NCBI GenBank assembly: GCA_016793775.1
Contig: JAEULK010000075.1
Coordinates: forward strand, 1-32,059
Direction: 5' to 3'
DNA length: 32,059 nucleotides
Source of the DNA: Sphingopyxis sp.
GTDB lineage: Bacteria; Pseudomonadota; Alphaproteobacteria; Sphingomonadales; Sphingomonadaceae
In this document: one piece after another, positions 6,828 through 32,059 of the stretch
Layout of the letters: each line of letters opens with the position of its first letter
How positions within the stretch are numbered: position 1 is the stretch's first letter
Translations under genes and position numbers: made by a program
The notes under the pieces: model-generated
Database searches by the model: none
What the model was told of the DNA's origin: nothing
The model's input: only the letters and a program-made list of their open reading frames with translations

Positions 6828-7142
6828 ATGGCCAACAGTCTGAAGTCTGCGCAATATCTGATCGAAAGCCGGTTGCTCGACGCCGCGCGCGGCGACGCCA
6901 ACGCCTATTTCGATCTGGGCATCGCCTTTTCGACCGGAAGCGGCGGGGTCGATGTCGACCTGATCCAGGCGCATAAATGGTTCAATCTCGCGGCGCTCGG
7001 CGGCAACAAGGAAGGCCAGCAATGCCGCGCCGACCTGTCCGACGAAATGACGCGCGACGAAATCGCCGAAGCGCAGCGCCAGGCGCGCGCCTGGCTCGAC
7101 GAAACCGCGCGCCGCCCGGCCGCGCGCCGCTTCGCCGCCTGA
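6828..7142 (+). CDS. Small Sel1-repeat-like protein
   Basis: 104-residue soluble protein with one recognisable Sel1-like helical repeat: RGDANAYFDLGIAFSTG followed by DLIQAHKWFNLAALGG, then AQRQARAWLDE. Sel1/TPR-like repeats usually mediate protein contacts, and no catalytic motif or signal peptide is seen. AGGGGG lies about 6 bases before the ATG. It stands alone between panC and a convergent operon, with a CtrA-like box upstream and a large inverted repeat downstream. Its binding partner is unknown. Confidence 0.8.
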   Translation: MANSLKSAQYLIESRLLDAARGDANAYFDLGIAFSTGSGGVDVDLIQAHKWFNLAALGGNKEGQQCRADLSDEMTRDEIAEAQRQARAWLDETARRPAARRFAA

Positions 7143-30075: not shown

Positions 30076-30219
30076 TAGCGCCGCGTTCGTCGAACAGCCG
30101 ACCGTCTCGACGGCCTAGAGTCAACGATTCCCATGCTTGCCCTCGTGAGACTTGACATTCGCTCGCGGATGATTCACGTTTTGTTCACATCTTGTACTTC
30201 AAAAGGGGCGGAGGTACAT

Positions 30220-30441
30220 ATGAACGGCAAATCACCTAATCTAACTTTGAGCCTACCTAAATGCGGTAGCTGTGGCCGTCATTGGCGGCCAGCCAAGGGC
30301 GTAGTCGCCACTCAGGGATTTTGTTCAAAATGCTCGAAGCGAAGGCTCGCTGCGGCAACGGATAGATTTGAGCTAGTACCTATTCCAGTTGGAGGCTTGG
30401 GTGGTCCCTATTTGTTGCCTCGCGCGCTACGCGATGGCTAG
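30220..30441 (+). CDS. Small zinc-ribbon-like protein, unknown
   Basis: 73 residues with two CxxC pairs, C15-x2-C18 (KCGSCGRHWRPAKG) and C35-x2-C38 (FCSKCSKRR), spaced as in a zinc ribbon, followed by a basic patch and a hydrophobic tail (VPIPVGGLGGPYLLP). GGAGG lies 6 bases before the ATG, a strong start signal. Base composition is lower in GC than the core genes. Its stop overlaps the stop of the convergent kinase gene by four bases. No family is recognised; nucleic-acid or protein binding is a guess from the ribbon. Confidence 0.7.
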   Translation: MNGKSPNLTLSLPKCGSCGRHWRPAKGVVATQGFCSKCSKRRLAAATDRFELVPIPVGGLGGPYLLPRALRDG

Positions 30442-31472
30442 GCACCGAGATACCTTTCAAGCTCAGAGATGGCCTGCTTAGAGGGTACTACACCATTTGA
30501 CCCTCCTAGCGTTCTTTTTCGACCTCGCGCTCCATTGGCAGGCTCGCTCCAAGCAACCCATTCGTTTTGGCGAGGCGCACTCTTCCATTCAACTACGTTC
30601 AATCGCCCGTTGGATACGAGTTCCCAGCGGACCTTGTCCGGTTCAACTTCAGCTTGCCAAGCCGGGATGACCGGAAGGCTCGCAATAGCGCCCATAGCCT
30701 GATCTGCAGATTGGTATCGCTTCGACGTATCGTCTTCCATCATTTGCCTCAGCACACGCCGCCATCGTTTTGGGATATGCGGCAGCCACTTCAAGCCATC
30801 AGCGAAGCCACCATGTGCAATGATGTTCTTTGGTTCGGGCATTTCCTCGTACCACCGCTTACCGTGAAGAAGGCGGAACAATGTCGCCCCCAACGCCCAG
30901 ATGTCTGAGCGCACACTCGTGCCTTTTCCCTGCCAAATTTCATATGCAATATGGTCGTAGTAGCCCGCACCAGATGCGTATCCGAACGCAATTTCGTCCG
31001 TCACAAGACCAAAGTCGCCTATGAGCGCGTTACCGCGAGCGTCCAATAGGATATTCGCAGGTTTAATATCCCTATGTATCAGCTTGCGAGCGTGGAGCGC
31101 TGACAGACCGAGAAGGACGTCAGTACCGATCTTGCGAACGGCCGGGATCGTTAGGGGGCCGCGCTCATACGGGATTTGTAAGGAGCCTCCAGGACAGAAT
31201 GCCATGCAGATTAGTACGCTCTCGTCATCGTCTGCAGCCACAATGTGATGAACCTTAACGACGTGATCATGAGCAGCACGCGACAGGTTTTGCGCTTCAG
31301 CTAAAAACGCAGCCTTCCAGGCCTTCCATTTTACGTCATCCCAATCGGCCTTCCGAATGAGTCTTTTGACCGCTACCTGCCCCTGAGCTTCATCTTGACC
31401 CAACAAAACTTCGCCGAATGCTCCAGCTCCCAGCTTGTGATCGACTTGAAGGCCCGAGATTAGATTCGGCAT
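30438..31472 (-). CDS. Ser/Thr protein kinase with an extra C-terminal domain
   Basis: 344 residues, soluble. Eukaryotic-like kinase domain (about 8-265): glycine loop GAGAFGEV at 15-22, VAVK with K36, E59 in the C-helix, catalytic HRDIKPAN at 133-140 with D135 and N140, DFG at 153-155, and SDIWALG at 189-195. All key residues are present, so it should be active; the APE motif is changed to AYE. Residues about 275-344 form a tryptophan-rich tail (WELVSNGRLNVVEWKSAP, NEWVAWSEP) of unknown type; no membrane helix or PASTA repeats. GAGGA is 7 bases before the ATG, which overlaps the upstream gene's stop by one base. Lower GC than the core genes. Confidence 0.9.
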   Translation of the reverse strand: MPNLISGLQVDHKLGAGAFGEVLLGQDEAQGQVAVKRLIRKADWDDVKWKAWKAAFLAEAQNLSRAAHDHVVKVHHIVAADDDESVLICMAFCPGGSLQIPYERGPLTIPAVRKIGTDVLLGLSALHARKLIHRDIKPANILLDARGNALIGDFGLVTDEIAFGYASGAGYYDHIAYEIWQGKGTSVRSDIWALGATLFRLLHGKRWYEEMPEPKNIIAHGGFADGLKWLPHIPKRWRRVLRQMMEDDTSKRYQSADQAMGAIASLPVIPAWQAEVEPDKVRWELVSNGRLNVVEWKSAPRQNEWVAWSEPANGARGRKRTLGGSNGVVPSKQAISELERYLGA

Positions 31473-31915
31473 CAGTTATTCCTCGCCGCGATCACAATCA
31501 TAGCTGCCTCGCGGCTGTTCTTGCGCAATGAGCCTCCGATCGTGTTTCTTTTCCAGAAATCGTCGTCTTGAAGATACTCGTCCATATTCCGATCGCCGTA
31601 TGTACGGCTTATCAAAGCTTTTGAAATCGTTCGAACTACGGTGACTGAGGCAGCTGATGCAATCATCACACCGCGCAATTCAGCGCTTGTCATATGACTA
31701 AGCTTCGTCGAGCCCATGGTCAGAGCGCTCGCTTTCACCACGACCTTGGTGATCCCATTTTCTCTCAGATAATTGGCGCATCGCCGATACATGACTTCGT
31801 AAGCTTCCGCTCGGTCGCCACTTTGAAGCTTCCAAGTGTTGTCCGACAGTATTACGATCGGCGCGCCAGCATCGTCCGGCACTTCAGTATCAACAGCGGT
31901 TACCACGTCACCCAC
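31472..31915 (-). CDS. Kinase-partner protein, possibly RNase H-like fold; may lack its 5' end
   Basis: 147 residues from a GTG. The stretch IVILSDNTWKLQSGD, YRRCANYLRENGITKVVVKA, ELRGVMIASAASVTVV and the end NSREAAMIVIAARNN resembles, by eye, the order of strands and helices in RNase H-like proteins such as DUF3010; no residue set proves a nuclease. In that fold a first beta hairpin should come earlier, and it is missing. The GTG lies only five bases from the IS256-like end, with an in-frame TGA supplied by that element, so the true start may have been cut off. The stop overlaps the kinase start (TGATG), so the two are co-translated. Confidence 0.6.
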   Translation of the reverse strand: MGDVVTAVDTEVPDDAGAPIVILSDNTWKLQSGDRAEAYEVMYRRCANYLRENGITKVVVKASALTMGSTKLSHMTSAELRGVMIASAASVTVVRTISKALISRTYGDRNMDEYLQDDDFWKRNTIGGSLRKNSREAAMIVIAARNN

Positions 31916-31919
31916 GATA

Positions 31920-32059
31920 GGTCGCGTCCGTCAAGGTGGTGTAATTTCGGCTGTGGCCGTGGGCCATCGTCAGGCGGCTTTGGCGGTGATGTGTAGGGGC
32001 TGATTTTCCTCCTCGATCATGGGTTGGTTGAGTTCGGCCATGCCTTCGATCTGCATGTA
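31920..32059 (-). mobile_element. IS256-like insertion sequence, one end only
   Basis: The end begins GGTCGCGTCCGTCAAGG followed by TGGTGTAA. The GTCCGT and GTGTAA blocks agree with the IS256 terminal repeat as I remember it. The transposase C-terminus follows on the minus strand at 31970. The element continues past the window edge; its exact tip is uncertain by a few bases and no target duplication can be checked. Confidence 0.6.
31970..32059 (-). CDS. Transposase C-terminus (partial, IS256/Mutator-like)
   Basis: The last 29 codons of a frame that enters from the right edge: YMQIEGMAELNQPMIEEENQ then PLHITAKAA and a stop. IS256-family transposases commonly end with a RYM-x2-E stretch and about 20 further residues, as here. 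The family call rests on this short end and on the adjacent terminal repeat. Confidence 0.55.
   Translation of the reverse strand, partial: YMQIEGMAELNQPMIEEENQPLHITAKAA

What the first reader, a model, noticed from the sequence alone, without database searches (positions are those of the whole stretch)
30438..31915. Coupled kinase and RNase H-like-fold pair in a low-GC tract
Seen: an intact Ser/Thr kinase whose start overlaps by one base the stop of a 147-residue protein, in DNA with clearly lower GC than the core genes and beside an insertion sequence. Known: kinases with extra domains occur in several phage-defence systems. Inferred: the pair could be an accessory signalling or defence module in which the kinase controls, or is controlled by, its partner. 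I know of no described system with this pair.
Basis: partly seen in the sequence, partly recalled or inferred. Interest (0 to 1): 0.7.

Follow-up and report, generated by a model that had tools for sequence, protein, structure and literature searches.

The report
Prophage-type kinase module with SOS switch
The flagged kinase pair belongs to a family of mobile gene cassettes distantly related to a known prophage kinase that aborts infection by rival phages; this branch has a third gene that appears to sit behind a DNA-damage (SOS) switch, and its function has not been tested.

Summary
Kinase (30438-31472, -) and partner (31472-31915, -) are real, low-GC and overlap by one base; the partner's 147 residues are a stump, because ISSpma2 removed its first ~10.

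A third gene was missed: a basic 73-aa zinc-ribbon protein (30220-30441, +) convergent with the kinase. Thirteen loci carry kinase and zinc ribbon, and the partner in all 12 where it can be seen. In 397 same-family genomes the zinc ribbon and the kinase C-domain score strongly in the same 8; no fourth gene is shared. A LexA-box match precedes the zinc-ribbon gene in 13 of 13 loci.

The partner has a predicted RuvC fold with altered active-site residues. More distant plasmid and phage kinases also follow a RuvC-like gene: inside type I restriction operons, beside DarT/macro genes, and in the phi24B immunity region, where the kinase is Stk. Published passages say that the related 933W Stk aborts HK97 infection.

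Best reading: an SOS-wired branch of 933W-type abortive-infection kinase operons. Gene identity and linkage are strong; the mechanism is inferred.

The parts
31472..31915 (-). RuvC-fold partner gene, 5'-truncated by an IS; the 147-aa reading starts at an internal GTG, about 10 N-terminal residues (most of strand 1) missing
   Evidence: ORF; alignment with 11 homologues; AF2 model of the L004 homologue, pLDDT 87.8 for the best of five; Foldseek ranks 1-12 all RuvC, E 6.5e-9 to 1.7e-6
30438..31472 (-). Hanks-type kinase, 344 aa, catalytic residues complete
   Evidence: Pfam Pkinase 6.3e-39; invariant residues in 10 loci; ATG overlaps partner TGA by 1 nt
30441..30674 (-). C-terminal domain of the kinase (about residues 267-344): five predicted strands and a helix
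   Evidence: AF2 secondary structure, best model pLDDT 76.7; alignment A7; only sub-threshold Pfam and PDB sequence matches; strong in 8 of 397 genomes
30220..30441 (+). Third gene: basic zinc-ribbon-like protein, 73 aa, CxxC-x16-CxxC, convergent with the kinase
   Evidence: HMM hits in the module loci; alignment A10; pN/pS 0.18-0.52; net charge +7 to +15 in 11 loci
30438..30441 (.). CTAG shared by the two convergent stop codons; leaves no room for a terminator between the genes
   Evidence: 4-nt overlap in 8 of 12 loci, and by coordinates also in L039
30172..30186 (+). LexA/SOS-box-like site ATTC-N7-GTTC upstream of the zinc-ribbon gene (7 of 8 consensus bases)
   Evidence: GTTCN7GTTC at the genome's own lexA and recA genes
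30152..30157 (+). TTGACA, putative -35 element of the zinc-ribbon promoter
   Evidence: the generic sigma-70 scan found no full promoter here
31919..32059 (-). 3' end of ISSpma2 (IS256 family) interrupting the partner gene; the contig ends inside it
   Evidence: 100% match to annotated ISSpma2 copies on Sphingopyxis plasmids

Best explanation
This is a mobile abortive-infection-type module of the same general design as the Stk locus of phages such as 933W and phi24B: a small RuvC-fold protein and a Hanks-type kinase made from one overlapping operon. In this branch a convergent, apparently LexA-controlled gene for a basic zinc-ribbon protein is always added. Shown by sequence: the three genes occur together in every locus of the branch seen; no other gene is shared; the two-gene core recurs in more distant relatives; most contexts are mobile or defence-related. 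Inferred: the kinase is kept idle in a complex with the RuvC-like protein, whose active site is altered and which may read branched or phage DNA or a phage protein; infection releases the kinase, whose phosphorylation shuts down the cell or the phage. DNA damage, including that caused by an invader, induces the zinc-ribbon protein, which tunes the kinase as activator, substrate or brake.
For: Linkage in 397 family genomes: zinc ribbon and kinase C-domain strong in the same 8, partner in 7 of these; the eighth (G161) is cut by its contig end. Among 1004 flanking ORFs of 13 loci one family is shared by two loci and none by three. Core pair outside this branch: the three distant kinases examined from the plasmid search (Mesorhizobium, Novosphingobium, Providencia) and the phi24B immunity region have a 134-155-aa ORF directly before the kinase, as has a Methylocystis plasmid found through that ORF; the Providencia-type protein is annotated RuvC-like Holliday junction resolvase in some phage records. 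In phi24B the order is cI, RuvC-like ORF, stk; prophage contig L021 of this branch has an S24/HTH repressor, partner and kinase in the same order and strand. 933W Stk aborts HK97 infection and is little active before infection (passages in PMC3681748 and PMC3564112). RuvC fold. Context. SOS box: 13 of 13 at <=1 mismatch; for the 12 loci other than Pseudomonas 0.64 expected.
Against: No functional data. The four kinases of this branch compared are only 24-27% identical to phi24B Stk, a level that other Hanks kinases can also show; the partners of the two groups are linked only weakly by sequence (hhalign probability 19%). The zinc-ribbon HMM and the C-domain HMM find nothing convincing in the three distant plasmid loci scanned, so the third gene is not part of the known system. 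Ten of the 12 alpha-type boxes have one mismatch, 8 of the 13 loci are from one bacterial family and not independent, and in the window alone the box pattern is not enriched (3 against 1.5 expected). In the window and in Sinorhizobium the partner is broken by an IS. L015 lies, by eye, among ordinary chromosomal genes.
Confidence: 0.55

Rival explanations
1. Toxin-antitoxin reading: the basic zinc-ribbon protein is a LexA-repressed toxin, and the kinase with its RuvC-like adaptor neutralises it by phosphorylation (type VII-like). Convergent transcription adds antisense control.
For: SOS-controlled toxin-antitoxin systems are known (HigAB in Caulobacter, yafN-yafO; passages in PMC9578287). Zinc-ribbon distances follow the kinase catalytic domain best (r 0.78; 0.62 with the partner, 0.54 with the C-domain). 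Its pN/pS is the highest of the three genes in 9 of 10 pairs, tied in the tenth. In both IS-broken loci the zinc-ribbon gene and its box remain.
Against: No Ser or Thr is invariant in 13 zinc-ribbon sequences. The core pair exists without it in relatives. Toxicity untested.
Confidence: 0.18
2. Mobile-element life-cycle regulator: SOS-induced zinc-ribbon protein and the kinase control prophage induction or element transfer; defence is secondary or absent.
For: Four of 13 loci lie in or look like prophage; the KKP kinase module controls lysogeny through MvaU (PMC11341870); 933W stk is cotranscribed with cI (passage in PMC3564112).
Against: Also on a plasmid, beside TniB/TniQ transposition genes and in islands; positions within prophages differ (tail cluster in L020, repressor region in L021).
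Confidence: 0.14
3. The RuvC-like partner is an active, non-canonical nuclease or DNA-processing enzyme that the kinase switches on or off.
For: The fold is RuvC. Acidic residues remain: position 13, just after strand 1, is Asp or Glu in 12 of 12; E146 in the last helix is kept in 11 of 11 sequences that reach there. K71 and S73 are invariant.
Against: At the strand-4 Glu of the genome's own RuvC the alignment has an invariant Lys. In the five more distant partners the strand-1 Asp of RuvC is replaced by an invariant Arg. No residue-level superposition was available.
Confidence: 0.08
4. An ordinary chromosomal kinase pair, conserved only by descent, with no special role.
For: Bacterial Hanks kinases are common, and the kinase domain score is unremarkable.
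Against: Rare and scattered: 7 of 397 genomes and 6 of 96 genera in the family, 2 of 398 in a phylum sample, 1 of 385 in a class sample, own genome included each time; mobile contexts; fixed gene set.
Confidence: 0.02

Closest known systems
Stk of phages 933W / phi24B (immunity-region kinase; Friedman et al. 2011, not held, known here from passages in PMC3681748, PMC3564112, PMC6356687)
   Same: Kinase of the same size (348 aa) with a C-terminal extension that aligns, including one invariant Trp; a 153-aa RuvC-like ORF directly upstream, overlapping by 7 nt; on prophages; repressor-partner-kinase order as in L021.
   Different: 24-27% kinase identity; no zinc ribbon noticed in the short stretch held, but a 54-aa basic ORF on the same strand; its cI operon, not an SOS box, is the known context.
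KKP (PfkA-PfkB-PfpC) prophage kinase-kinase-phosphatase module (PMC11341870)
   Same: Three genes, kinase-centred, mostly in prophages or near mobile and restriction genes; toxin-antitoxin and defence.
   Different: KKP has two kinases with FHA and cold-shock domains and a PP2C phosphatase; here one kinase, a RuvC-fold partner and a convergent zinc ribbon.
MADS protein kinase MAD6 (PADLOC PDLC04138, NCBIfam NF047741)
   Same: Best-scoring PADLOC defence kinase, kinase domain only (2e-49).
   Different: 101.8 bits against a cut-off of 460; models of 612-659 positions. Other MADS genes were not searched for.
PD-T4-6 and Stk2 single-gene defence kinases
   Same: Hanks kinase domain (PD-T4-6 models to 2.2e-39).
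   Different: Single-gene systems (Stk2 per PMC11341870; PD-T4-6 recalled).
RuvC Holliday-junction resolvase (PF02075)
   Same: Fold of the partner.
   Different: No Pfam RuvC hit in 12 members, hhalign probability 0.1 with the genome's own RuvC, altered active-site positions.

Membership tests
933W-type Stk locus | About 345-aa Hanks kinase with a C-terminal extension | tested here: met
   344 aa; extension aligns in 9 kinases with invariant W279 and G322 of Stk, although the branch's C-domain HMM does not detect the distant ones
933W-type Stk locus | RuvC-like ORF directly upstream | tested here: met
   the relation between the two partner groups itself is weak by sequence
933W-type Stk locus | Downstream of a phage repressor gene | tested here: not met
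   Not seen in the window (IS and contig end); met in prophage contig L021 and by annotation in phi24B
933W-type Stk locus | Aborts infection by another phage | not testable with these tools
   Needs experiments
KKP module | Two adjacent kinase genes with cold-shock and FHA C-domains | tested here: not met
   One kinase of this family per locus; no CSD or FHA match
KKP module | PP2C phosphatase gene in the cluster | tested here: not met
   No flanking family is shared by three or more of 13 loci; single loci were not scanned for PP2C
MADS (MAD6) | MAD6 above the curated cut-off | tested here: not met
   101.8 bits against 460
RuvC resolvase | RuvC fold | tested here: met
   AF2 model (best pLDDT 87.8; two of the five models were 65 and 53) and Foldseek, E 6.5e-9
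RuvC resolvase | Sequence membership in PF02075 | tested here: not met
   No RuvC hit in 12 members at E<=1
RuvC resolvase | Catalytic acids (recalled motifs) | tested here: inconclusive
   Lys at the strand-4 position; an acid at position 13 in 12 of 12 and E146 in 11 of 11; a non-conserved Glu at position 3 in 4 of 11; Arg for the strand-1 Asp in 5 of 5 distant partners
Active Hanks-type kinase | Lys, alpha-C Glu, HRD Asp, Asn, DFG Asp | tested here: met
   Invariant in 10 loci
SOS (LexA) regulon | LexA box of the host's type upstream | tested here: met
   13 of 13 loci at <=1 mismatch, 3 exact; hosts of L020 and L021 are unnamed. 7 of 8 bases is the criterion used in PMC4211646
SOS (LexA) regulon | Induction by DNA damage | not testable with these tools
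   Needs RNA data
Anti-phage defence system | On mobile elements or beside defence genes | tested here: met
   L015, L016 and the visible side of the window give no such support

The most novel reading that the evidence does not exclude
A RuvC-fold pseudo-nuclease plus Hanks kinase is a general, so far unrecognised two-gene immune core, of which phage Stk is the known case: the RuvC-like subunit reads replication or recombination intermediates of an invader for the kinase. In the branch found here a convergent LexA-controlled zinc-ribbon protein adds a second, SOS-dependent input.
Probability: 0.25. Interest if true: 0.85.

Novelty: new variant of a known kind. Interest (0 to 1): 0.62.

Why it matters
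If right, a prophage kinase cited in the passages seen as a single exclusion gene would be one example of a wider two-gene system found in phage immunity regions, type I restriction operons and islands, with an overlooked RuvC-like partner. The branch found here would tie such a kinase to the SOS response. The cassette is about 1.8 kb and testable in laboratory strains.

Tried and rejected
Rejected: membership in KKP, MADS or RuvC (see membership test); 147 aa as the native length; a fourth module gene; the longer ORF 30133-30441 as the true start, since it would run through the SOS box and GGAGG precedes the ATG at 30220. My own first statement that strand 1 of the partner holds no acidic residue was wrong on recount and is withdrawn; so is the idea that the kinase pair has no described relative.

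Led nowhere: PHROGs, NCBIfam, Pfam and PDB sequence searches with partner, zinc ribbon and C-domain gave only sub-threshold matches, for instance DUF3010 at 0.04 in one of 12 partners. The L004 partner has no match in 50,697 phage records and one plasmid record; a single-sequence scan of viral contigs found none. Foldseek of the kinase is dominated by kinases; AMPK alpha chains rank first with alignments longer than the kinase domain, which hints at a KA1-like C-domain, but rmsd is about 22 and the aligned residues are not shown. WGR- or AP2-like readings of the C-domain are recalled resemblances, untested. The promoter scan found no sigma-70 promoter, and terminators at chance level. The promoter-plus-box pattern has 3 matches in the genome against 2 for its reversed control, so no enrichment in number; one match is lexA's promoter, one is this gene's, one was not assigned. 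Weak hits not inspected: 8 of 16 genomes (E 3.9e-4 to 8.8e-3) and 15 of 23 (E 5.6e-4 to 9.9e-3); the two weak sets share no genome. Not examined: the E. coli and Klebsiella plasmid places, and 13 of the 14 phage records beyond their row in the listing.
Full report
What is in the window. The right end of the window (which is the whole contig C98) leaves the pheS-pheT-like genes (named by eye) and drops to 53-55% GC. On the minus strand lie the partner (31472-31915) and a 344-aa kinase (30438-31472), overlapping by one base. From about 31919 on the DNA is the end of an ISSpma2 copy. The L004 homologue has ten more N-terminal residues, and residues 2-11 are its first predicted strand, so the 147-aa reading is a stump with an internal GTG start.

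Relatives of the branch. The partner led to Pseudomonas sp. GV071 (L004, 62% identical) and a Sinorhizobium meliloti plasmid (L005); both have the kinase downstream, and in Sinorhizobium ISRm4-1 interrupts the partner. Comparing the loci showed a third conserved ORF, convergent with the kinase. Whole-genome searches with the partner gave 7 of 397 in the family, 2 of 398 in a phylum sample and 1 of 385 in a class sample, own genome included. One viral contig came from the partner (L020), one from the zinc ribbon (L021), one genome locus from the C-domain (L039).

The three-gene unit. In 13 loci (window, L004, L005, L012-L017, L019-L021, L039) kinase and zinc ribbon are present, and the partner in the 12 where the DNA reaches that far. 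Ten of the 13 were found through the partner and the window was given, so the partner's presence there is no independent test; the kinase and zinc ribbon are. The reciprocal test: in samples of 397 family genomes (same handles, apparently the same genomes) the C-domain scores E<1e-25 in 8, the zinc ribbon E<1e-29 in the same 8, the partner in 7 of them; in the eighth the kinase runs off the contig end. Weaker hits, 8 and 15 genomes, share no genome and were not inspected. Kinase and zinc-ribbon stops overlap by 4 nt in 8 of 12 loci (14 nt in L017; gaps of 2, 5 and 109 nt in L004, L005 and L020), and partner and kinase overlap by 1-8 nt in 10 of 12 (L021 has a 3-nt gap, L005 is interrupted). 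pN/pS is 0.13-0.36 (partner), 0.12-0.35 (kinase) and 0.18-0.52 (zinc ribbon) in 10 pairs, with pS of 0.67-0.92, hence rough. Of 1004 mechanical flanking ORFs within 8 kb, one family occurs in two loci (L013, L014) and none in three. Component distances correlate over 11 loci (r 0.54-0.86), partly through shared descent.

Context. L020, L021 (viral contigs) and L039 carry phage genes by Pfam: tape measure, S24 repressor, terminase and tape measure; L004 looks prophage-like, with a chitinase-class endolysin-like gene and an IMS polymerase gene. L005 is a conjugative plasmid, with DprA and phosphoribosyltransferase neighbours. L019 directly follows Mu-transposase C, TniB and TniQ genes; whether it lies within the element was not tested. 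L012 is next to BglII endonuclease, MT-A70 and OLD-like genes; L013 next to ResIII, Eco57I, N6 methylase and integrase genes. L014 has ArdC and ParB-type genes on one side, L017 a DNA_pol_B_2 gene on one side and a serine recombinase beyond the next ORF or two on the other. L015 looks like ordinary chromosome by eye, and L016 is on a 7.7-kb contig.

The wider family. A check of three more distant plasmid kinases (26-30% identical) changed the picture. Each has a hypothetical gene directly before it: in Mesorhizobium next to DarT and macro-domain genes; in Novosphingobium inside a type I restriction operon, hsdS-hsdM-hsdS-X-kinase-hsdR; in Providencia downstream of a LexA-family regulator gene and near recT. 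A second type I operon, in Methylocystis, has the same insertion. The Providencia partner is 70% identical to ORFs in 12 Escherichia/Stx-type phage records, some annotated RuvC-like Holliday junction resolvase, and partly similar to two Bacillus phage places. In the phi24B immunity-region record the order is cro, cI, this ORF (unannotated there), stk, with a 7-nt overlap. Passages in three papers state that the tyrosine kinase Stk of 933W is cotranscribed with cI, is activated on HK97 infection and aborts it (PMC3681748, PMC3564112, PMC6356687); the original paper is not held. L021 of our branch shows S24/HTH repressor, partner and kinase in the same order on one strand. The four kinases of our branch that I compared are 24-27% identical to Stk but align with it over the whole length, C-terminal extension included. 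The partner groups are linked by position, size and pattern more than by sequence: hhalign 19%; the distant group aligns with the genome's own RuvC from residue 1 at 30%, with Arg7 opposite RuvC's Asp7. Neither zinc ribbon nor C-domain HMM finds a convincing match in the three distant plasmid loci; the Providencia and phi24B loci instead have a 53-54-aa basic ORF after the kinase.

Protein anatomy. The partner model (four sequences; five models with mean pLDDT 87.8, 86.9, 84.6, 65.1, 53.0) is a complete RNase H fold; the twelve best PDB hits are RuvC (E 6.5e-9 to 1.7e-6, TM 0.68-0.76); many of the viral structure hits are named RuvC or Holliday junction resolvase. By sequence our group is not detectably RuvC. 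An invariant Lys stands opposite the strand-4 Glu. Position 9, where I place the strand-1 Asp by hand (G-x-D of RuvC), is Ser, Val or Thr in the 10 complete members, but position 13 is acidic in 12 of 12, and E146 is kept. Loss of nuclease activity is therefore likely, not shown. The kinase has all catalytic residues; its model is moderate (pLDDT 76.7 for the best, 51-66 for the others), and the C-domain is predicted as five strands and a helix. The zinc-ribbon proteins are 70-75 aa with net charge +7 to +15 (11 loci); in L019 and L020 the second pair reads GxCC instead of CxxC.

SOS box. Upstream of the zinc-ribbon gene, starting 23-77 bp before the start codon, each of 13 loci has a LexA-box match: GTTCN7GTTC with at most one mismatch in the 12 loci other than Pseudomonas (exact in L020 and L021), and CTGTATATATAGACAG in Pseudomonas, which fits the P. 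aeruginosa entry CTGN2TN7CAG listed beside the Caulobacter one in PMC9578287 (passage). In random 85-mers of the same 12 loci such a site occurs with frequency 0.02-0.08, expected 0.64 of 12; 10 of 209 ORFs of at least 100 aa have one within 85 bp (module ORFs not removed). Exact gamma-type boxes occur three times in the 20 kb of L004, one of them, at 6961, between ORFs that look like SRAP and umuD. Upstream of the partner no exact site occurs; one of 12 has a one-mismatch alpha-type site, three a one-mismatch gamma-type site, and L012 has an exact gamma-type match before its zinc ribbon, presumably chance. The genome's lexA and two recA genes have GTTCN7GTTC upstream, lexA behind TTGACA as here. 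Limits: shared ancestry, mostly one mismatch, nothing measured.

Mechanism. Convergent genes that share stop codons leave no room for a terminator, so SOS-induced zinc-ribbon transcription may also act antisense on the kinase. I hold the three-gene identity at about 0.9, the relation to the Stk-type core at about 0.75, and the abortive-infection reading at about 0.55. All steps of signalling are inferred.

Literature. Ten searches of the held library (titles and abstract starts of the listed part only) showed no description of a RuvC-like-kinase module or of the three-gene unit. For KKP I saw abstract, passages and one results section; [quoted passage not shown] For DefensePredictor, PMC9578287, PMC4211646 and the three papers on Stk I saw passages only.

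Noticed in passing
L077:1401-1862 (phage phi24B immunity region): An unannotated 153-aa RuvC-like ORF lies between cI and stk and overlaps stk by 7 nt; other phage records annotate it as a RuvC-like resolvase. It may be an overlooked partner of Stk.
   Followed up: partly
L075:3468-5008 and L078:4001-5538: RuvC-like gene plus kinase inserted between hsdS and hsdR in two type I restriction operons (Novosphingobium, Methylocystis).
   Followed up: partly
G000:C9:510-1295 and G000:C37:4260-5045 (L063, L064): Two recA genes on different contigs of the host assembly, each with a GTTCN7GTTC site upstream; duplicate, mobile copy or contamination.
   Followed up: no
L004:6961-6976: Exact gamma-type LexA box between ORFs that look like SRAP and umuD in the same Pseudomonas region.
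   Followed up: partly
L005:5548-7684: HAD hydrolase, DprA and phosphoribosyltransferase genes next to the module on the Sinorhizobium plasmid; possibly another accessory cassette.
   Followed up: no
L017:6372-9104: A 910-aa protein with a type B DNA polymerase domain of viral or organellar type lies directly upstream of the module in G121.
   Followed up: no
L021:5940-6260: A tandem array of roughly 18-bp units in a prophage contig, seen by eye.
   Followed up: no
window 31919-32059 and L005:8224-9069: In two of 13 loci the partner is the gene hit by an insertion sequence.
   Followed up: partly
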